IMG/VR virus record: IMGVR_UViG_3300020428_000051 | Span: 1-32,158 of that record | DNA length: 32,158 nucleotides | Direction: 5' to 3' (one strand) | Origin: a virus | Shown: piece after piece, positions 5,600 through 14,691 of the stretch | Position numbering within the stretch: the first letter of the stretch is position 1 | Layout: each line of letters starts with the position of its first letter | Position numbers and translations under genes: made by a program | Notes under the pieces: model-generated | The model's database searches: none | Seen by the model: the letters and a program-made list of their open reading frames with translations, nothing else | What the model was told of the DNA's origin: nothing

Positions 5600-6340
5600 T
5601 TGAAAACCATAGTGACGCTCCTCTATGGAGACAAATATAATGCTGATGATGTTCACCGTATTTATCAAGACACAAAACAGTATAATCATGTATGTATAGT
5701 TGATGAGAAAAATGCAAAGTACCTAGATAAAAACATACACACATTGCCGGCCGGCGATGATGAAACTTTTGAAAAGATAAAAATATTCAAAAATAATTGG
5801 GTAGGGGATTGCCTTTACCTAGACCTTGATGTTATAATACAAGGGTCTATAGAAAAATTATTTTGTAAGAAACCAACGATATGTTATTGTTATTGGAAAC
5901 ACCCTGACCAAGTAACATACGGTGACCATAAATATAAGCTAGGCGAAAGATATGTAGACAATGGAAATCCTCTAGCACCTTGGACTTCAAAGTGGATTGG
6001 CATGTGGAACTCCAGTGTGATGTCTTGGAGTGGTAACAATGCTAGATATATATACGACCACTTTGAAATGAAAGACCAATTCTACATGACTAAATATGCT
6101 GGAGATGACAGGTTTTTATATCACGAAAATTTATTCAACAATGTATTCCCACGAGGTTTGATATATTCGTGGCAGTTTGGTGTTGATTTTGAAACTGATA
6201 AGTCCCCCAGAGCATACCAATGGAAACCAGATTATCCTCTGATACTTTTAAATAGTACGCATGAAACAAAAGAAGAGTTGAGACAAAAATATTATGATGC
6301 ATTTTCTTTGCATGAAATGGGGCAACAAGTACAGTCCTGA
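5600..6340 (+). CDS. GT-A-type glycosyltransferase-like protein, copy 1 of the plus-strand array
   Basis: 246 aa, starting at a TTG. The perfect Shine-Dalgarno sequence GGGAGGA at 5588-5594, 5 nt before the TTG, decides this start. The N-terminal strand MKTIVTLLYGDKYNADDVHR, then CLYLDLDVIIQG at 71-82 with a DxD motif at D75/D77, and later SSVMSWSG and YSWQFGVDFE, match the other array members. DxD normally binds the metal-nucleotide sugar in GT-A enzymes. It is the most diverged copy: it has YGDKY in place of KWGTKY and lacks the CYTDD motif. The 3' end overlaps the next gene by 47 nt in another frame. Acceptor and sugar are unknown; a transferase acting on virion or host surface glycans is inferred. 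Confidence 0.72.
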   Translation: MKTIVTLLYGDKYNADDVHRIYQDTKQYNHVCIVDEKNAKYLDKNIHTLPAGDDETFEKIKIFKNNWVGDCLYLDLDVIIQGSIEKLFCKKPTICYCYWKHPDQVTYGDHKYKLGERYVDNGNPLAPWTSKWIGMWNSSVMSWSGNNARYIYDHFEMKDQFYMTKYAGDDRFLYHENLFNNVFPRGLIYSWQFGVDFETDKSPRAYQWKPDYPLILLNSTHETKEELRQKYYDAFSLHEMGQQVQS

Positions 6341-9023
6341 TTATGTAAATAATCTATACAAGATGGTGAAAGAAAACTACAGTAAACGACACAAGTTTAT
6401 CTGTTATACTGATGACCCAGAAGGTATAGACAAGAACATAAAAATTAGAACAATTCCAAAGGTTGACTCTTTACACCCAGACTTTTGGTTTGGTAAGGAA
6501 AACTATTGTTGGGATAGGTCAAAATTTCTAGTATTAAATTCCCATCGATGGTTGAGAACCAAGGGGCCTTTCTGTTATCTTGACTTGGATGTGGTCATAC
6601 AAAATAATATTGATGACATCTTTGAACTAAGCAAAACCCCACATATGATATACACTCACTGGGAAGACCCATCTGTACTAAAAGACAGACGTTTTCAAGA
6701 TGTCCGTGGCACACTATACAACTCTAGTGTGATGTTGTGGTGTAACAATGAGGGCGAAAAAATATACAACGATGTCATTAAACACAAAGACGTTGTGTAT
6801 AAAACATTCTGGAAAGGCACAGACAATTATTATCCTTGGAGAGAATATCAAGTAGTAGGAGACAACTATTGGTCATTCTTACCAAAAGATTGGGTCTACT
6901 CTTACAACAGAGGGCAAGAGTTCCCCAATGATTTGACAGAACACCTGTACAGAGAGACAGCAAAGTTTTGTATATTCGACTCCCCCACTGGGAGACCGCA
7001 AACAAATTACAAGCCGCATGAAGTTCGTGACTATAATATCCTTGTACACTGGCATGGCAAAAATGACTTTGAACGTCTATGGATGCCCAAGTTCCCCGAC
7101 AATTTTTTTGATAAAAACAAACACACTGAGAGGATTGACACTCTAATAGAAAATGCTAATGAGTATGACTCATTCGTAAAACAAATCGAATCTAGACATA
7201 GAAAAACCATAGAGGAACTTGAGAACGATTTGATATCAATGCACAAAAAGTTCTTAGCGGACTTTCCCAAAGACCCTCTGTTGATAGAAGGCAATGAGTC
7301 TTTGTATTGGAACAAAGACATTGACGGTATCTACAATTTTTATAAAGACAGATTTGTCTATAAGATGCACAAAGTTGTTTTCAATGTACTAGTAGATAAA
7401 TTCTATACCGATTTACCAAAACTAAAACAAGATTGGGAAAAGTACAGTAACAAGTTTGATAGTATAAAAAACTGGTCTCAGTTTGATTCCATGACGGATG
7501 ATACACTAGAAAAAAACTACATCGACCAAAAAGTAATAAGCAAAATAAAATACATGGTGAACCAAAATGATTTGACATCTTTGGCTTCCCTGATGATAGA
7601 GTTGTTTCCAGAACTAGAAAAACAATTGCAAGGAAGTATATCAGAAATAAAAGAAAACATCCCAGAACTAGAAAAAGAAATATCAGACTTAACATTTATC
7701 AGACGTATAGAACCAGAACATAGAAAAACAATAAGAGAGATATATGATACTGGTGATATGATTTCTATGCACAAAAAATTTCTTGCAGATTTCCCAGAAG
7801 ATAAGATGTTACAAGATGGCGACCAAGCTTTATATTGGAATAAAAGTTTTGACGGTGTGTATGATTTCTACAAAGAAAGATATATCTCTAGACAACATAA
7901 GATTGTCTTTGACGAAGCAAAAAAATATGGGCCAGTGAGATACTTTTGGAATATAAACTACGGCAGAATTTTCGCATTGTATAGGAGACTGTGGCATAAG
8001 AACGAACTGCCACTAGTCAAAAAAGAATTCATGGAGAACGTAAAAAGATATGGCATCCAGAGATTGTTTTGGGATGCAGATAATTCTGACACACAAAAAC
8101 TGTACAAAAGATATTACATTGACAACCTAAAAGAATTGTTTTACAAACAAGATTATGAGGCCGTGTTTGAAAGATTGTATAACATCATGCCCAAGGATGA
8201 GTTGTTAAATATTTTAAAACAGGATAATATATCAGACGATGATACTCTTGTCAAATATTTTCAGATGCATGGTGAACAATACAGTGATATGTACAAGGGG
8301 TTGTATGAGGATGGTTCCCCAGATGGTGCCCTGATACAACTGAGTAGCACTACAAATGATACCGATGACCCCTACAATGACATATTCCTGACAGAATACG
8401 AACACAACTTATCATCAATCAAAAAAATATTTGATAGGTACAGGGTAAATTGGGTAACTTTAATGTGTGAGATATCTGACCCCACCAAGTCTGAACATTT
8501 TGAAAACATATGTAAGTATTTTAAAGACAACGGTGTCACTCTGACCGTTCAAACATACGATAAAACTTTTATGAAACCCAGCTGGATAGACAACATGGAG
8601 TATGTTGAACAACCAGAACTAACGGAAAATATGCCAGTAGTAAAAGAAACCATTGCTAGTGACATACCAGTGAACCTAGACACGTTGAGGATGTTCAAGA
8701 AAAGGGATGAAGTAAGAAGACCAAAACCAAAGTCAAAGGTTGCTGACCCTGTGTGGTGTGATGCGAGAAAGAGCGGATACTTCTATGTTAGTGCTGATTC
8801 GGGTGCGTATCCGTGTGCTTGGATTGCTAGGGATGTACTAGAAAACAAACTTTTACCATATCATCCCCTTGACTACGCATACAATAATCAGTATAATAAT
8901 TTGAAAAACTTCACTGTTGGTGAGGTTATATATAATAATGACTTTGAAAATATAAGTCAAAATCTGAAGAGAAGTCCTCTGTCTATTTGTAATAAGAAGT
9001 GCGGTGATTGTCATGCGAGTTAA
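6294..9023 (+). CDS. Glycosyltransferase-like / internal-repeat / SPASM-like fusion protein
   Basis: 909 aa. Residues 1-280 are a GT-A-like domain: KWGNKY at 8-13, CYTDD at 37-41, YLDLDVVIQ at 95-103 with D97xD99, and YSYNRGQEF. Residues about 300-640 are helical, with two long repeats and four copies of a W-N/D motif. Residues about 685-909 resemble the end of a radical-SAM barrel plus a SPASM-type domain: C822, C841 (SADSGAYPCAW), then CNKKCGDC at C899/C903/C906. No CX3CX2C precedes the barrel-like part, so radical-SAM chemistry is not expected. ATG 6294 or 6297 keeps the first beta strand seen in paralogues; ATG 6312 would lose it. An Fe-S or structural metal role for the cysteines is inference. 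Confidence 0.7.
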   Translation: MMHFLCMKWGNKYSPDYVNNLYKMVKENYSKRHKFICYTDDPEGIDKNIKIRTIPKVDSLHPDFWFGKENYCWDRSKFLVLNSHRWLRTKGPFCYLDLDVVIQNNIDDIFELSKTPHMIYTHWEDPSVLKDRRFQDVRGTLYNSSVMLWCNNEGEKIYNDVIKHKDVVYKTFWKGTDNYYPWREYQVVGDNYWSFLPKDWVYSYNRGQEFPNDLTEHLYRETAKFCIFDSPTGRPQTNYKPHEVRDYNILVHWHGKNDFERLWMPKFPDNFFDKNKHTERIDTLIENANEYDSFVKQIESRHRKTIEELENDLISMHKKFLADFPKDPLLIEGNESLYWNKDIDGIYNFYKDRFVYKMHKVVFNVLVDKFYTDLPKLKQDWEKYSNKFDSIKNWSQFDSMTDDTLEKNYIDQKVISKIKYMVNQNDLTSLASLMIELFPELEKQLQGSISEIKENIPELEKEISDLTFIRRIEPEHRKTIREIYDTGDMISMHKKFLADFPEDKMLQDGDQALYWNKSFDGVYDFYKERYISRQHKIVFDEAKKYGPVRYFWNINYGRIFALYRRLWHKNELPLVKKEFMENVKRYGIQRLFWDADNSDTQKLYKRYYIDNLKELFYKQDYEAVFERLYNIMPKDELLNILKQDNISDDDTLVKYFQMHGEQYSDMYKGLYEDGSPDGALIQLSSTTNDTDDPYNDIFLTEYEHNLSSIKKIFDRYRVNWVTLMCEISDPTKSEHFENICKYFKDNGVTLTVQTYDKTFMKPSWIDNMEYVEQPELTENMPVVKETIASDIPVNLDTLRMFKKRDEVRRPKPKSKVADPVWCDARKSGYFYVSADSGAYPCAWIARDVLENKLLPYHPLDYAYNNQYNNLKNFTVGEVIYNNDFENISQNLKRSPLSICNKKCGDCHAS
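7188..7383 (+). repeat. Internal repeat A1 of the 909-aa protein
   Basis: Encodes about 65 residues, opening ESRHRKTIEELENDLISMHK and including KKFLADFP, LYWNKDIDG and FYKDRF. It is matched by copy A2 about 525 nt downstream, with roughly half of the residues identical by eye. The most conserved block is ISMHKKFLADFP. Confidence 0.85.
7710..7905 (+). repeat. Internal repeat A2 of the 909-aa protein
   Basis: Second copy, opening EPEHRKTIREIYDTGDMISM, then HKKFLADFP, LYWNKSFDG and FYKERY. It aligns to A1 with one short indel. The nucleotide sequences have diverged more than the protein, so the duplication is not recent. Confidence 0.85.
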
Positions 9024-9816
9024 TGTGGTGTGCAGTAAGTGGGGAACTAAATACGGCCCGCATTTTGTTAATCGACTTTACAACATGTCGAAAAGAAATA
9101 TACCAGAGGATAAATTTGATTTTCATTTCTACTGTTATACTGACGATGATAAGGGACTTCTACCTGATATCAAAGTTATACCATTTCCAGACATCGATTC
9201 CATACATCCTAAGTATTGGTTCGGCCATGATGACTTTAAGTATGGCATGGCTAGATGTTGGGACAGACCTAAAACAATGGTCTTCAATACTCACAATTTT
9301 GCAGCAGATAAGCCGACAGGACGTTTCATCTTCTTTGATTTGGATATAATAATACAAAATGATTTGACTCCCATCATCACATACAACTTAGAACAACCCA
9401 CAAAAATGCGGTCATGGTGGCAAGACCCCAGACCCATGTTAAGTAGACAATTCAAACTAGCACACGGCGCACACACAAACGGTAGTTGTCAAGTGTGGAG
9501 TGATGACCAGTGTGAACCTATCTGGAATGACGTACTAGAACACCAAGAAAAGATATGGTTCACTTTCACAGACGGTACAGATAACTACCACTCTTGGAGA
9601 TGGAAAAAACTGTGGGATTACTTTCCAAGTTGGATGGCATATTCATACAACCGTGGAAGGTCATGGGCCGAGGATGATTTGCGTGTAGGGATTTACAGAG
9701 AAAATTGCATCATCTGTGTATTTAACGTAGACCTTTTGCCTTTTGAGGACAAGAGTAGAGGTCACACAAAACAAGATGACCTTGCTGACCCAAGGTTACT
9801 GGAGCATTGGCGATGA
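9013..9816 (+). CDS. GT-A-type glycosyltransferase-like protein, copy 3 of the array
   Basis: 267 aa from ATG 9013, with GGTGA at 9003-9007 as ribosome binding site. A GTG at 9004 in the same frame is less likely. Family motifs: VNVVCSKWGTKYGPHFVNRL at 3-22, YCYTDD at 40-45, FFDLDIIIQND at 107-117 with D109xD111, WSDDQCEPIWNDV, and AYSYNRGRSW near the C-terminus. It resembles the N-terminal domain of the 909-aa protein closely in length and motif order, including HPKYWFG against HPDFWFG. It overlaps that gene by 11 nt, and its stop overlaps the miniprotein start as ATGA. GT-A fold and DxD suggest a nucleotide-sugar transferase; the substrate is not readable. Confidence 0.75.
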   Translation: MRVNVVCSKWGTKYGPHFVNRLYNMSKRNIPEDKFDFHFYCYTDDDKGLLPDIKVIPFPDIDSIHPKYWFGHDDFKYGMARCWDRPKTMVFNTHNFAADKPTGRFIFFDLDIIIQNDLTPIITYNLEQPTKMRSWWQDPRPMLSRQFKLAHGAHTNGSCQVWSDDQCEPIWNDVLEHQEKIWFTFTDGTDNYHSWRWKKLWDYFPSWMAYSYNRGRSWAEDDLRVGIYRENCIICVFNVDLLPFEDKSRGHTKQDDLADPRLLEHWR

Positions 9817-9980
9817 CTAATTTAAAAAAGTGGTGGAGAATATGGGCAAAATCTTTGGGAGAAAAAGCTTCCGATGATTCTAATGAAGCAGATTTGGTTG
9901 CGATATTTAGAACCATCGTAGTTCTTGTTAATTTCTTTACTTGTTTCTTTATCATATCTGGGGTTTTAAGACATTGGTAA
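9813..9980 (+). CDS. 55-aa membrane miniprotein between glycosyltransferase genes
   Basis: ATG at 9813, TAA at 9978-9980. The N-terminal half is polar and basic/Trp-rich (MTNLKKWWRIWAKSLGEKAS), then DDSNEADLVA. A hydrophobic stretch follows, about residues 29-52 (from LVAIFRTIVVLVNFF through CFFIISGVL), ending RHW. A single-pass membrane or membrane-surface protein is likely, with the basic/Trp segment on one side. It fills the gap between two glycosyltransferase genes exactly: its ATG overlaps the upstream stop (ATGA), and its stop overlaps the TTG start of the next gene (TTGGTAA). That fit supports a real gene despite its size. It could anchor the transferases at the membrane, but this is inference. 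I have a vague memory of similar small proteins in marine T4-like phages. Confidence 0.72.
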   Translation: MTNLKKWWRIWAKSLGEKASDDSNEADLVAIFRTIVVLVNFFTCFFIISGVLRHW

Positions 9981-10651
9981 ATATATACACCGTAAAGTGG
10001 GGAACAAAATACAACCACAAACATGTCCAACAAATCTATGAATCATGTTTGGAAAACTTGACCGTAGACTTTACATTTCACTGTCTAACTGATGATGCAA
10101 CCGACATATCTTCGGACATAAAAATCATATCTTTGCCAGGCGGAAACAAACTAGAGAAGTGGTGGAACAAGATGTATTTGTTCAATGATGATATTGTAAC
10201 CCAAAAGGGCGAAAAGATGTTCTTTGATTTGGATGTCATCATACAAAAAAATGTAGATGTGATTGCTAACTATGACCCAGAAGATAATCTGTGTCTAGTA
10301 AAAACTTGGTGGCATGATTTAGAAACACAATACAAAGAGACAAGACACATACCTCATAAATTTACTGACCTCAATTCGTCAGTGTTGAGGTGGAATGATG
10401 ACCTAAATACTAGAGAGCTTACAGAATATTTTAATAAATATCAAAAACAAATATTATGGTATTATCGTGGCCTCGACAATTTCTTTTACAATAGAAGAGT
10501 TATCAAAACAAAACTGTTCCCACTTGGATGGGTTTACAGTTTCAATCAAGGGTTTGTTTTTCCGCATGACATAGAAAAACACACCTATAGAGAACTACCA
10601 TACGTTTGTATTTTTGATTCAATGGGAAAAGGTGAAGATGTTAAATTTTAA
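9974..10651 (+). CDS. GT-A-type glycosyltransferase-like protein, copy 4 of the array
   Basis: 225 aa from a TTG at 9974 that overlaps the miniprotein stop. Earlier in-frame starts at and after 9941 would add residues unlike the paralogues, whereas LVNIYTVKWGTKYNHKHVQQ aligns at once with the other copies. Motifs: HCLTDD at 36-41, FFDLDVIIQKN at 83-93 with D85xD87, LNSSVLRWNDD, and VYSFNQGFVFP near the C-terminus. It is shorter than copy 3, mainly from loss of the HPKYWFG-type insertion. The start relies on coupling: the only upstream purine run is GGGG within ATCTGGGGTTTT. A nucleotide-sugar transferase of unknown substrate. Confidence 0.72.
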   Translation: MVNIYTVKWGTKYNHKHVQQIYESCLENLTVDFTFHCLTDDATDISSDIKIISLPGGNKLEKWWNKMYLFNDDIVTQKGEKMFFDLDVIIQKNVDVIANYDPEDNLCLVKTWWHDLETQYKETRHIPHKFTDLNSSVLRWNDDLNTRELTEYFNKYQKQILWYYRGLDNFFYNRRVIKTKLFPLGWVYSFNQGFVFPHDIEKHTYRELPYVCIFDSMGKGEDVKF

Positions 10652-11321
10652 TTTTTTAAATAATTTTAAGCACTGGGGCGAAGCACTACATGTTATCGAA
10701 AACAAGATGCCTCATAAACTTGCAGACTTCCGAAAGTCTATGGAAGAAAATAACATGGAGGCAAGTATCTGGTGCGTAGAGGAAACGAAAAAATATATTG
10801 AAGAGTATTACACCAAAACAGGTTCCCTGAGAGTGCTGATATTGAACTCGTGGTTGGGTGTTCCCCTAGTTCCGCTACTGTGTGAAAACATGGATGTGGC
10901 TCAAATTCACATGGTGGATATCGATGAAGAGTCTATTGAACTCTCTAAGATTTTCCATAAACATTATGCACAAGAAAAGTTCGTAAACATTCGACACTGG
11001 AATCTGGATGTCCCATTTGAGTTTGAGAATCTAAACAAAATTGACGTAGACCTTGTTATCTGTCTCTGTACAGAACAACTGTATCCTCTGGCAGAACTCA
11101 ACGGCAAGAATCCACAGGCGATATACGCCATTCAAAACTCAAATGTAGTAGAAGAAATGTTTGGTATCAACTGTGTTGGTAGTATTGAAGACTTAAAGAA
11201 ACAAGTCAACATAGAAGAATGTGGATACGAGGGAATCAAGAAACAAACATATTATTCTTGGGACGGCAAAAAGGAATATGATAGATTTATGATTATAGGA
11301 CAAAGAGAAGGATTCTTCTAG
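10638..11321 (+). CDS. Class I methyltransferase-like protein with an atypical motif I
   Basis: 227 aa. ATG 10638 is chosen over an in-frame TTG at 10614 because AAAGGTGA lies just upstream of the ATG. Residues 64-81 (LRVLILNSWLGVPLVPLL) sit where SAM-dependent enzymes have motif I, but the loop reads NSWLG in place of DxGxG. IHMVDIDEESIELSKIF at 90-106 is a typical motif II-like strand with the ribose-binding acidic residue (D94 or D96). WNLDV at 121-125 and VDLVICLC at 137-144 fit later strands. Fold assignment is moderate; activity is uncertain given the altered loop. It overlaps the preceding transferase by 14 nt and ends at a CTAG shared with the convergent gene. Confidence 0.55.
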   Translation: MLNFNFLNNFKHWGEALHVIENKMPHKLADFRKSMEENNMEASIWCVEETKKYIEEYYTKTGSLRVLILNSWLGVPLVPLLCENMDVAQIHMVDIDEESIELSKIFHKHYAQEKFVNIRHWNLDVPFEFENLNKIDVDLVICLCTEQLYPLAELNGKNPQAIYAIQNSNVVEEMFGINCVGSIEDLKKQVNIEECGYEGIKKQTYYSWDGKKEYDRFMIIGQREGFF

Positions 11322-11935
11322 GGTGCAAAGACTACGTTGCCTGATGCTGTAATTCTACACTCATTAGAAGTATAGAATGGATACACTATGTGCGGCAATT
11401 TAGCATCAAACAAAACCATCTTACCAATAAAACTCTCATCAACATCTAAAGTTATTTCTTCTGGGCCGGCAAGAGGTTCATTAAATACAAATCCAAGTCT
11501 AGAAGTTTTCTTATCTGGTGTGTCTGGAAAAACTTTATCTTCTTCGGATAAGTCGTATGGTATCTGAATGAATACCACAAAAGAAAACAATCCTCCATGT
11601 CTATGGAGAGGATTGAATTCATGTTTCTTCATATGATTCACCCATGTTGTTTCAAGTTTGATGGGTGGTATGGGATTTAAAGTATCTTTGTATTTACTAA
11701 CGTACTCTGTGACTTCTGGTTTCTTAAAGTTTTTCATTAAGTCATCACGAATGGTGACAGGCAAATTCTCTATTTTTATTTGTTTCTGAAGATGTCCAGC
11801 TAGATTCTCGTTGTTGGATAAAGTTCCAACATAATCTTTGTAGAAGTTTACAGTATCCCAACTGACTTCGCCAGACCAGATACCATCATACTTCTGCAAT
11901 TGTTCTTCTGCCATAAACCAGTTTATTGAGAACAT
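11318..11935 (-). CDS. 2OG-Fe(II) oxygenase-like protein
   Basis: 205 aa. The start at 11935 is chosen because GGAGG lies 4 nt before this ATG; an in-frame ATG at 11959 would lack one. Residues 108-126 (NPLHRHGGLFSFVVFIQIP) and 171-200 (GKMVLFDAKLPHIVYPF through RITASGN) match the double-stranded beta-helix oxygenase family common in marine phages (2OG-FeII_Oxy_5 type). Probable iron ligands are H111 or H113 and H182; R194 would bind 2-oxoglutarate. Here the usual HxD is HxH. Substrate is unknown; hydroxylation of a protein, sugar or nucleotide is possible. It overlaps the upstream oxygenase-like gene by 13 nt and ends tail-to-tail with the methyltransferase-like gene. Confidence 0.72.
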   Translation of the reverse strand: MFSINWFMAEEQLQKYDGIWSGEVSWDTVNFYKDYVGTLSNNENLAGHLQKQIKIENLPVTIRDDLMKNFKKPEVTEYVSKYKDTLNPIPPIKLETTWVNHMKKHEFNPLHRHGGLFSFVVFIQIPYDLSEEDKVFPDTPDKKTSRLGFVFNEPLAGPEEITLDVDESFIGKMVLFDAKLPHIVYPFYTSNECRITASGNVVFAP

Positions 11936-12534
11936 ATATCCTCCACCATCATTTCCCACATCGCCTGATTCGGAGTCACGAATCCAATAGTTTCTCTCAC
12001 TCCCCTACTTCCAGCACAATGCCAATACGGATTGTCTGGCCCACCATAGTATCCAACTTTAGCTTGCCATCCAATATCATCATCAATTGTTTTTACTTTG
12101 CCATGTTCTAGATATCGGAAAAATCCCTGACCATCACTCCTAGTCAAAAGTATATTATAGCCTGGACAGTCCCAATTATTATGCCAAGACATAAATCCTC
12201 CAACTGGATACAAAACATGAACAGCTGTATACTTTGTGCCCAACCAATCGCCAAGTTCAGTTGACAACTCTAAAGATTTCGTTCTCAATTCGTCTGGTAT
12301 ACCATGAGTATTATGAAAGTCTGTTACCTTTGCATACTCTGGCGGGCCTTTGTGATTACTATCGTTGTACATCACAGAATGTAAATAGTCATCCCCACAA
12401 TAGTAATCTATATCGTGTTCGCCATGTCTTCTCTCATCTGTAACTAAAGAACCATAGTTCTGATTATCAAACCAATCAGTCCAATTATCCAACATACTAA
12501 TGAGCTCTGGATTTATTTTATCTATCGTTTGCAT
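11923..12534 (-). CDS. Second 2OG-Fe(II) oxygenase-like protein
   Basis: 203 aa from ATG 12534; an upstream in-frame ATG at 12609 would overlap the glycosyltransferase by 88 nt. The 13-nt overlap given by 12534 equals that of the next gene pair. Residues 114-131 (FMSWHNNWDCPGYNILLT) and 171-186 (WHCAGSRGVRETIGFV) look like the two halves of a cupin/double-stranded beta-helix iron site. H118 and H172 are likely ligands and R180 the 2-oxoglutarate anchor. The acidic ligand is not obvious (N120 or D122). It is not closely similar to the neighbouring oxygenase, so this is not a recent duplication. The family resembles phage oxygenases with WHxNxNAPGYN-type motifs, recalled from memory. Confidence 0.6.
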   Translation of the reverse strand: MQTIDKINPELISMLDNWTDWFDNQNYGSLVTDERRHGEHDIDYYCGDDYLHSVMYNDSNHKGPPEYAKVTDFHNTHGIPDELRTKSLELSTELGDWLGTKYTAVHVLYPVGGFMSWHNNWDCPGYNILLTRSDGQGFFRYLEHGKVKTIDDDIGWQAKVGYYGGPDNPYWHCAGSRGVRETIGFVTPNQAMWEMMVEDICSQ

Positions 12535-13214
12535 TTTATCGTATAGTGTGTTATAATAACATCCTGTCCATCCAACTCTTCTGGTTTTTGACCCAAACAA
12601 AAATTCCATCTAGCATCTGGACTTGGGAAGTCACCAACCTTGATGGTATCTTTATACTTCGTTTTGTTCAATAGATACCACATAGTGAATGTGTCCCAAG
12701 GTCTCACCCTTTCCGAATACGGAGATGGGTCATAACTGTCTGAAATTTGATATTGATACTGGTCAAACCAATCATCGAATAAGTCTTGAGTTTTTGACTT
12801 ACGATAAACAAAAACGCCACAATGATATATCATTTCTTCTGTATCGTTTAGTTTTGTTATCTTTGCATTGTAGGGACGATTGCGAGTGAAGATAATATCG
12901 TTGTCATTAAGGTAATCAAATGCGGTTGATATATCTTCATGTTGAATATAGGTGTCACAATCCAGATACATTGTTTTTTCATATGGAGAACGTGATAGAG
13001 CCCACAACTTAGTTCTTATGTGGTTTGGGCCATACGTTGCAATGTTTTCAAAGATTTCATAATCTTCTTTCTCTACCCATTCTGGTATGGTAAATAAAGT
13101 TATTCTTGCATCTGGATAAAATTCTTTGAGAGATATTGCTGAGGTTTTTGCAGCTTCATAGTATTCTTTTTTTACTGTGGCTACATAAAGATACCCACTA
13201 TCCAATATGTTCAT
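12522..13214 (-). CDS. GT-A glycosyltransferase, minus-strand copy
   Basis: 230 aa. N-terminal SGYLYVATVKKEYYEAAKTS starts a nucleotide-diphospho-sugar transferase fold. KLWALSRSPYEKTMYLDCDT at 69-88 carries the DxD (D85xD87), followed by YIQHED. GVFVYRKS and a C-terminal VIITHYTIKCKR complete a GT8-like layout. It shares only the general fold and YLDxDxYIQ pattern with the plus-strand array and lacks KWGTKY and CYTDD, so it is a separate lineage. Its ATG overlaps the upstream gene by 17 nt and its stop overlaps the next gene by 13 nt. It is probably expressed from the sigma70-type promoter at 13681-13710. Substrate unknown. Confidence 0.78.
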   Translation of the reverse strand: MNILDSGYLYVATVKKEYYEAAKTSAISLKEFYPDARITLFTIPEWVEKEDYEIFENIATYGPNHIRTKLWALSRSPYEKTMYLDCDTYIQHEDISTAFDYLNDNDIIFTRNRPYNAKITKLNDTEEMIYHCGVFVYRKSKTQDLFDDWFDQYQYQISDSYDPSPYSERVRPWDTFTMWYLLNKTKYKDTIKVGDFPSPDARWNFCLGQKPEELDGQDVIITHYTIKCKR

Positions 13215-13713: not shown

Positions 13714-14691
13714 TTAAACTGTTCTGATAAACAACTGTTTTGTCTCTTGAGTAGAACTTGATGACTGAATAGTATTACCAGCATAGTATCCAGTATATGT
13801 TCCAGAATAAGAACCAGTGTAGTTAGCGTTCAAGAATCCAGCAAAGAATCTTGAGTAACTACCAGAGTATGAACCAGTGTAATCTCCAGAATAGTTTACA
13901 CTAGCAACGTCTTTCAACTGGTCAGTCATTGTTGCGCCCATCTGAACCCATGTTCCAGCAGCACTGGGAGCACCAGTTTGTAACAAGTATTTTCCAACAC
14001 CACCAGCCATAATTCGATTTCTAAAAGCTGGTAACAGTGTTTGGATATTGGCAGCAGTCATCTCTGTGATACTACCAGTGTCAGTATCAACTTTTAAGAG
14101 AAGGTCTTCATTGGTTCCAGCATCAGTAGTAGGAGCAGTTTTTTGCCAAAGGTAATAATTTACATCTGTTCCATCTACCTGTGTTTCCGCGATGGTATAT
14201 CTAGATGTCCATGTTCCACCAGAGGGTGAAGAAGTTTCTATTTTATATTGACCTACAGTATTCGCGTCTTCAGCACACATTGCGGTTATACAAAGGTCAA
14301 GAACTTCCGTATCAACTTCTGTATCTGTCCCCTGTTCTACAGCTTCGCCCGTCCACCTGAGAGGATTTATTTGTCCACTCTCAGAAGCAGTGGCACTTAT
14401 CTGATTAAATCGATGAACTGTGTCAGTCGTTGTCTGTGTAACTGGGTGTTGACCCACAGTTTGATCGCTTTCTCTGTTAGTAAAAGTTCCAATTTCATCA
14501 CTACCAGCAGAACCACCTTGAACCACATTTAGTTCAGCAGTTCCAGAACCATCGGTGTTATCTGCAAAATGCTTAGTGATTACACCAGCAACTTGGTTTT
14601 TGATTTCAGCTGATGTCAGCTCAATGAAACCTTCCAAACCATCCGCAGCTGCTGGATACGCACCAGCTTTAAGTGTAATTGGCCCTGCCAT
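13714..14691 (-). CDS. Tail-fibre-type protein with Gly-Tyr repeat tip
   Basis: 325 aa. Residues 1-60 (MAGPITLKAGAYPAAADGLE, then LTSAEIKNQVAGVITKHFAD) look like a fibre attachment region. The middle is a beta-rich shaft with Gly/Thr/Asp. Residues 266-306 form a low-complexity run of YSG, YTG and GSYSGxYTG units, followed by a short Ser/Gln-rich end. Such Gly-Tyr tips are common in the distal fibres of marine T4-like phages and are candidates for receptor contact. It starts 9 nt after the previous fibre gene, and no TATAAATA lies immediately upstream, so it is probably expressed from the 15636 promoter. It might be a short- or long-fibre subunit; which one is unclear. Confidence 0.7.
   Translation of the reverse strand: MAGPITLKAGAYPAAADGLEGFIELTSAEIKNQVAGVITKHFADNTDGSGTAELNVVQGGSAGSDEIGTFTNRESDQTVGQHPVTQTTTDTVHRFNQISATASESGQINPLRWTGEAVEQGTDTEVDTEVLDLCITAMCAEDANTVGQYKIETSSPSGGTWTSRYTIAETQVDGTDVNYYLWQKTAPTTDAGTNEDLLLKVDTDTGSITEMTAANIQTLLPAFRNRIMAGGVGKYLLQTGAPSAAGTWVQMGATMTDQLKDVASVNYSGDYTGSYSGSYSRFFAGFLNANYTGSYSGTYTGYYAGNTIQSSSSTQETKQLFIRTV
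13774..13896 (-). repeat. YSG/YTG repeat tract in the fibre protein
   Basis: Codes for residues 266-306, with tripeptide-like units SGD, YTG, SYSG, NYTG, SYSG, TYTG, YYAG. The units are interrupted by RFFAGFLNA. Codon use varies between units, so the repeat is kept at protein level rather than as a recent DNA expansion. Confidence 0.85.

What the first reader, a model, noticed from the sequence alone, without database searches (positions are those of the whole stretch)
6294..9023. Glycosyltransferase fused to a SPASM-like cysteine domain without the radical-SAM site
The 909-aa protein starts with a DxD glycosyltransferase domain and ends with C822, C841 and CNKKCGDC (C899/C903/C906), in a context resembling the end of a radical-SAM barrel plus SPASM domain. 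The CX3CX2C expected at the start of a radical-SAM barrel is absent; that region is a transferase plus repeats. A transferase joined to an orphan auxiliary cluster domain could be a new modification enzyme, or a recombinant that captured the tail of a radical-SAM gene.
Basis: partly seen in the sequence, partly recalled or inferred. Interest (0 to 1): 0.75.

Follow-up and report, generated by a model that had tools for sequence, protein, structure and literature searches.

The report
Glycosyltransferase carrying a disarmed radical-SAM tail
A family of uncultured marine T4-like phages makes a sugar-transferring enzyme whose tail is half of a radical-SAM enzyme that has lost its catalytic iron-sulfur site but kept, unchanged, the cysteines of its second (auxiliary) cluster, which suggests that the old radical enzyme now serves as a handle for the sugar transferase.

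Summary
ORF 6294-9023 (909 aa) has C822, C841, C899, C903 and C906 where stated, and all five are invariant in 35 of 35 non-redundant homologues that reach the tail. The architecture is not a one-off recombinant. Across marine virus contigs the tail is always fused to this glycosyltransferase: 69 complete long forms (with helical repeats) and 37 complete compact forms (465-481 aa, no repeats). It was never found intact on its own, and not in cellular genomes or cultured phages. The N-terminus matches GT8 enzymes (glycogenin). The C-terminus is a shortened radical-SAM barrel (about three of six beta/alpha units) plus a single-cluster (twitch) SPASM domain. Support: Pfam SPASM on homologues, HMM hits to intact phage radical-SAM proteins, Foldseek hits to SuiB and viral radical-SAM proteins. 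A sister lineage has a bare glycosyltransferase in the same syntenic slot. Most likely a GT8 enzyme in a host-recognition island uses a disarmed radical-SAM/twitch module, probably still metal-bound, to hold its acceptor. Metal binding and acceptor are untested.

The parts
6294..9023 (+). whole fusion ORF, 909 aa; overlaps the upstream GT ORF by 47 bases and the downstream GT ORF at 9004/9010
   Evidence: 69 complete long and 37 complete compact homologous ORFs
6294..7073 (+). residues 1-260: GT-A domain, GT8/glycogenin-like; DxD = D97/D99, conserved N143-S-S, G175-[ST]-D-N178, H252-W-x-G255-K
   Evidence: PHROG 1962 glycosyltransferase E 0.0019; Foldseek top hits glycogenin E 6e-5, then LgtC, GlyE; invariant residues
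7086..8288 (+). residues ~265-665: all-helical region with an internal ~70-aa duplication (301-365 / 473-540); absent from compact homologues
   Evidence: AF2 pLDDT ~80-94 for most of 370-610
8319..8573 (+). residues 676-760: first half of a radical-SAM barrel (beta1-alpha1-beta2-alpha2-beta3); CX3CX2C positions 687/691/694 are T/D/Y here, never Cys in the family; P730 is at the place of the proline of the GGEP-type motif
   Evidence: AF2 pLDDT ~70-93; column counts; HMM hits to intact phage radical-SAM proteins; HHalign P 2.4e-5; Foldseek
8355..8387 (+). residues 688-698 N-D-T-x3-(F/Y)-N-D-x-F: the conserved motif that stands where CX3CX2C would be
   Evidence: N688 35/35, D689 34/35, T690 34/35, F698 35/35
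8739..9020 (+). residues 816-909: twitch-type SPASM domain; C822, hairpin 829-839, C841, helices, C899/C903/C906
   Evidence: cysteines 35/35; Pfam PF13186 in 16/22 homologues, one above cut-off; hairpin between C822 and C841 in the model, pLDDT ~82; dN/dS ~0.02-0.07
5600..6340 (+). neighbouring GT8-like ORF (slot A of the island)
   Evidence: Pfam GT8 E 8e-4, PHROG 1962 E 9e-9
9010..9816 (+). neighbouring GT paralogue (slot C), 38% identical to the fusion's GT domain
9941..10651 (+). neighbouring GT paralogue (slot D), 33% identical to the fusion's GT domain
11318..11959 (-). 2OG-Fe(II) oxygenase in the same island
   Evidence: Pfam PF13759 E 4e-8, PHROG 81 E 5e-21
13714..14691 (-). putative virion protein with [ST]-G-x-[YF] repeats at its C-end; possible acceptor of the GTs (speculative)
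   Evidence: sequence only; relatives near the island in other loci and in both sister loci without the fusion

Best explanation
It is a GT8-type (glycogenin/LgtC-fold) glycosyltransferase of marine T4-like phages that long ago captured a radical-SAM/SPASM protein. The captured part was cut down to half its barrel plus the one-cluster (twitch) domain and lost all three cysteines of the SAM-binding cluster. SHOWN: domain order, absence of the CX3CX2C, invariance of the five tail cysteines, purifying selection, homology of the tail to radical-SAM/SPASM proteins. INFERRED: (1) the GT transfers a sugar from a nucleotide sugar, since DxD and other conserved motifs are intact; (2) four of the five cysteines (C822, C841 and two of C899/C903/C906) hold one metal site, most likely an Fe-S cluster, that keeps the tail folded; (3) the tail does no radical chemistry and acts as the acceptor-binding or docking module, presenting a protein or peptide acceptor to the GT. 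The acceptor is probably a phage tail protein of the same island, or else host surface glycan.
For: Fusion in 106 complete homologous ORFs, never a complete intact tail without the GT. Five Cys 35/35 and no Cys at any of the three radical-SAM positions. CT-family HMM: the best non-family hits among 4792 ORFs are the intact radical-SAM proteins of phages Mosig (2e-5) and F379 (8e-5) and of L103/L185 (5e-4), then their separate SPASM ORFs (0.009-0.01). HHalign to intact radical-SAM proteins P 2.4e-5, score 42.4 against at most 18.9 in 20 shuffles and in reversed and GT controls. Pfam SPASM in 16/22 homologues, one above the curated cut-off. Foldseek: SuiB E 3e-4 and viral radical-SAM proteins for the tail, glycogenin E 6e-5 for the full-length model. 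Third-Cys position to first SPASM Cys is 107-129 residues, against 197-199 in two intact relatives. Topology Cys-hairpin-Cys-helices-Cys as in the twitch domains of BtrN/SkfB (PMC6231123). A GT without the tail occupies the same slot in the sister lineage.
Against: No metal binding, activity or acceptor has been measured. The SPASM part of both AF2 models is mostly low confidence (pLDDT 35-80), and the SuiB match has poor global superposition (TMq 0.33, rmsd 17 A). The window protein itself matches neither SPASM nor GT8 in Pfam; membership is carried by homologues. Five cysteines, not four, are conserved. PMC7029224 proposes host LPS, not protein, as the acceptor of such phage GTs.
Confidence: 0.5

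Rival explanations
1. The tail is a redox or oxygen switch: its cluster assembles or falls apart with cellular iron or redox state and turns the glycosyltransferase on or off.
For: Five invariant Cys in a module that lacks the SAM-cluster cysteines.
Against: No sensor architecture or precedent found in the papers searched.
Confidence: 0.12
2. The tail docks with one of the phage's own intact radical-SAM proteins and supplies or takes electrons, so glycosylation and radical modification act on one substrate in a complex.
For: Large phage records with the fusion also carry seven to nine radical-SAM domains; some radical-SAM proteins have their SPASM part as a separate ORF; intermolecular electron transfer has been shown for a radical-SAM enzyme (PMC10470005).
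Against: No radical-SAM gene in this 32-kb window, though it is a fragment; several fusion records show none either, also fragments; no co-variation tested.
Confidence: 0.1
3. The cysteines are a structural zinc site; the fold is radical-SAM-derived but no iron-sulfur cluster is present.
For: CX3CX2C plus two distant Cys could bind zinc; the SAM cluster is already lost.
Against: Spacing and hairpin topology follow twitch domains, which bind Fe-S clusters.
Confidence: 0.2
4. A decaying chimera or assembly artefact: the GT gene ran into the tail of a radical-SAM gene and the tail is passive.
For: Radical-SAM genes are common in these phages.
Against: Same junction in dozens of independent contigs; dN/dS of the tail ~0.02-0.07 in pairs with estimable dS; cysteines invariant.
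Confidence: 0.03

Closest known systems
Twitch/SPASM radical-SAM enzymes (SuiB, BtrN, SkfB; PF04055 + PF13186)
   Same: Start of the barrel, C-hairpin-C then CX2C after helices, low but significant profile and fold similarity (PMC6231123).
   Different: All three SAM-cluster cysteines absent in every homologue; barrel 70-90 residues short; fused behind a glycosyltransferase.
Split radical-SAM + SPASM ORF pairs of marine phages (L103 1682-2461 with 2436-2705; Mosig_00084/00085)
   Same: Among the best sequence relatives of the tail in the ORFs searched.
   Different: Intact CX3CX2C and longer barrel; SPASM part is a separate gene; no glycosyltransferase.
Glycosyltransferase family 8 (glycogenin, LgtC, GlyE)
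   Same: GT-A fold match, DxD, HxxG.
   Different: Below the Pfam GT8 cut-off; carries a helical insert and a disarmed radical-SAM tail that the GT8 enzymes known to me lack.
Stand-alone GTs of the same island (L161 4433-5212, L165 1292-2062)
   Same: Sister sequences of the fusion's GT domain, same syntenic slot.
   Different: Lack the repeats and the radical-SAM/SPASM tail.

Membership tests
Radical-SAM superfamily (as an active enzyme) | CX3CX2C SAM-cluster motif | tested here: not met
   positions 687/691/694 hold no Cys in 35/35 homologues
Radical-SAM superfamily (as an active enzyme) | partial (beta/alpha)6 barrel | tested here: not met
   three confident beta-alpha units; 107-129 residues to the SPASM domain against 197-199 in intact relatives
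Radical-SAM superfamily (by descent) | significant sequence-profile similarity to intact members | tested here: met
   HHalign P 2.4e-5 with shuffled controls; HMM E 2e-5 to 5e-4
SPASM/twitch domain | CX9-15GX4C around a beta-hairpin | tested here: inconclusive
   22/35 homologues match exactly; the window protein has the Cys pair and hairpin but S instead of G at that place
SPASM/twitch domain | two further Cys as CX2C after the last helix | tested here: met
   C903/C906 35/35; model helices 884-893 and 896-903
SPASM/twitch domain | Pfam PF13186 above its curated cut-off | tested here: inconclusive
   compact homologue 21.6 bits against 21.5, one more only with its neighbours; window protein no match
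SPASM/twitch domain | bound auxiliary Fe-S cluster | not testable with these tools
   needs purified protein
SPASM (two-cluster form) | seven-cysteine motif CX9-15GX4C-gap-CX2CX5CX3C-gap-C | tested here: not met
   only five conserved Cys; the protein ends 0-4 residues after the last
GT8 | GT-A fold with DxD | tested here: met
   Foldseek glycogenin E 6e-5; D97/D99 34/34
GT8 | Pfam PF01501 above its cut-off | tested here: not met
   no match for this protein; paralogue 5600-6340 at 19.5 of 24.3 bits
GT8 | HxxGxxKPW motif | tested here: inconclusive
   H252-x2-G255 kept, K at +1 instead of +3 after the G

The most novel reading that the evidence does not exclude
A radical-SAM pseudoenzyme that has kept its auxiliary Fe-S cluster and serves a glycosyltransferase, either by holding the peptide acceptor at the cluster or by coupling glycosylation to redox state or to the phage's intact radical-SAM enzymes. 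This would be a use of an auxiliary cluster outside radical chemistry, which I did not find described.
Probability: 0.3. Interest if true: 0.8.

Novelty: new variant of a known kind. Interest (0 to 1): 0.58.

Why it matters
The role of SPASM/twitch auxiliary clusters in radical-SAM enzymes is still debated. Here evolution has removed the radical site and kept the auxiliary cysteines invariant, so the domain can be studied without radical chemistry. It also points to a GT8-type enzyme with a borrowed module in a marine phage host-recognition island whose glycosyltransferase targets are unknown.

Tried and rejected
Pfam and NCBIfam on the window protein alone gave nothing useful. PDB sequence search with tail and compact profiles: no match. 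Genome-contig scan with the tail: none. Tail in annotated phages: none. Extra conserved cysteines C725 and C740 as a substitute SAM-cluster site: rejected, absent in compact homologues. Decay or artefact: rejected by dN/dS and by recurrence. Full two-cluster SPASM: rejected, too few Cys. Paper searches for a glycosyltransferase-SPASM fusion or a radical-SAM pseudoenzyme found no description; most subscription papers are not held.

Full report
OBSERVATION. The ORF at 6294-9023 is open and 909 aa long, with D97xD99, C822, C841 and C899-X3-C903-X2-C906 as described. The window is a 32-kb virus record of a marine T4-like myovirus; its baseplate wedge protein is closest, at 35-37% identity, to Methylophilales phage Melnitz and Pelagibacter phages HTVC008M and Mosig.

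THE ARCHITECTURE IS REAL AND RECURRENT. Scans of viral contigs with the tail gave 56 loci at first, and more with profiles. Over all loci, 69 complete ORFs have GT + helical repeats + tail (735-916 aa) and 37 have GT + tail with no repeats (465-481 aa). Tail pieces without a GT are truncated by contig ends, except one frame-broken copy; 368 complete ORFs match the GT alone. These counts include overlapping loci of the same contigs; 91 distinct sequences carry the tail. The tail was not found in genome contigs or in annotated phages, where only the GT part matches weakly.

WHAT THE TAIL IS. The tail of homologues matches Pfam SPASM (16 of 22), the best compact one just above the curated cut-off; the window protein itself does not match. 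A tail-family HMM run on 4792 ORFs from all loci found, outside the family, first the intact radical-SAM proteins of phage Mosig (E 2e-5), Campylobacter phage F379 (8e-5) and L103/L185 (5e-4), then the separate SPASM ORFs beside such genes (about 0.01); apart from a piece of the family itself and the same radical-SAM and SPASM proteins in other loci, the rest is at 0.3 or worse. These loci had been fetched as radical-SAM relatives, so the ranking is meaningful but the set was not random. HHalign with four intact phage radical-SAM proteins gave P 2.4e-5, score 42.4; reversed, GT and 20 column-shuffled controls stayed at or below 18.9. AlphaFold2 predicts beta1-alpha1-beta2-alpha2-beta3 with high confidence and the cysteine part mostly with low confidence apart from a hairpin. 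Foldseek with the tail model returns SuiB as the top five PDB hits and viral radical-SAM or Fe-S proteins as the top five BFVD hits.

THE SAM SITE IS GONE, THE AUXILIARY SITE IS NOT. Aligning beta1 with intact proteins (by eye; LELTNKxNDTGNxF against YEISSTCQARCPMC) puts the three cysteines at 687, 691 and 694. In 35 homologues these are T/R/Q/S/H/Y/F/I, D/K/N/S/G/E and Y/F, never Cys, while N688, D689, T690 and F698 are almost invariant. The C-terminal cysteines are 35/35. Between the third-Cys position and the first SPASM cysteine there are 107-129 residues, against 197-199 in two intact relatives, so 70-90 residues, about half of the barrel, are missing. C822-hairpin-C841-helices-CX2C is the twitch pattern described for BtrN and SkfB (PMC6231123). 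Two-cluster SPASM is excluded by the number of cysteines.

SELECTION AND ORIGIN. Synonymous sites are near saturation between homologues. Where estimable, dN/dS of the SPASM part is 0.02-0.07, of the half-barrel 0.05-0.17, and of the linker up to 0.6. In a tree of GT domains the fused ones lie on one side of one branch (84/86, modest), next to the unfused GTs of L161 and L165. Those unfused GTs sit in the same slot of the same island. Hence the tail was gained, or less likely lost, by a GT in that slot, and the compact form shows the repeats are dispensable. Direction is inferred.

CONTEXT. The island holds four GT-like ORFs on the + strand (5600-6340, the fusion, 9010-9816, 9941-10651), a methyltransferase-like ORF (10614-11321), a 2OG-Fe(II) oxygenase (11318-11959), an oxygenase-like ORF without a Pfam match (11923-12609), another GT8-like ORF (12522-13214) and then a protein with [ST]-G-x-[YF] repeats (13714-14691). 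This resembles the host-recognition cluster of pelagimyophages, where GT8 enzymes and radical-SAM cassettes were noted and host LPS was proposed as the target (PMC7029224).

MECHANISM. The GT-A domain matches glycogenin and LgtC and keeps its DxD. The most economical reading is an active glycosyltransferase whose tail binds or docks the acceptor. Radical-SAM/SPASM proteins such as SuiB act on peptides, which makes peptide binding by the remnant plausible, and the repeat protein in the same island is a candidate acceptor. That step is speculation; relatives of the repeat protein also occur in sister loci without the fusion, so it does not depend on the tail.

VERDICT.

Noticed in passing
L103 1682-2461 with 2436-2705; L104 1866-2672 with 2647-2916; L186 1465-2100 with 2093-2431: Radical-SAM proteins of marine phages whose SPASM part is a separate, overlapping ORF (split radical-SAM/SPASM pair), also in Pelagibacter phage Mosig.
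   Followed up: partly
records of L018, L033, L039, L042, L043; L106: Seven to nine radical-SAM domains per phage record, several clustered, many with an N-terminal SPASM-like domain; an unusual density for phages.
   Followed up: no
window 13714-14691; L161 10112-11005; L165 6659-7750: Putative virion protein with long [ST]-G-x-[YF] repeats near the glycosyltransferase island; repeat number and type vary between phages.
   Followed up: partly
window 11318-13214: Three overlapping minus-strand ORFs: 2OG-Fe(II) oxygenase, a second oxygenase-like protein without Pfam match, and a GT8-like protein; the last two keep their order in L056 and L165.
   Followed up: no
window 7194-7388 and 7710-7913: Internal duplication of about 70 aa (DLISMHKKFLADFP...) in the helical region; one copy in the 835-842 aa homologues.
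   Followed up: partly
L056 6484-8439; L161 6012-6611: Optional cassettes in the island (methyltransferase-like, fatty-acid desaturase-like) between GT slots.
   Followed up: no
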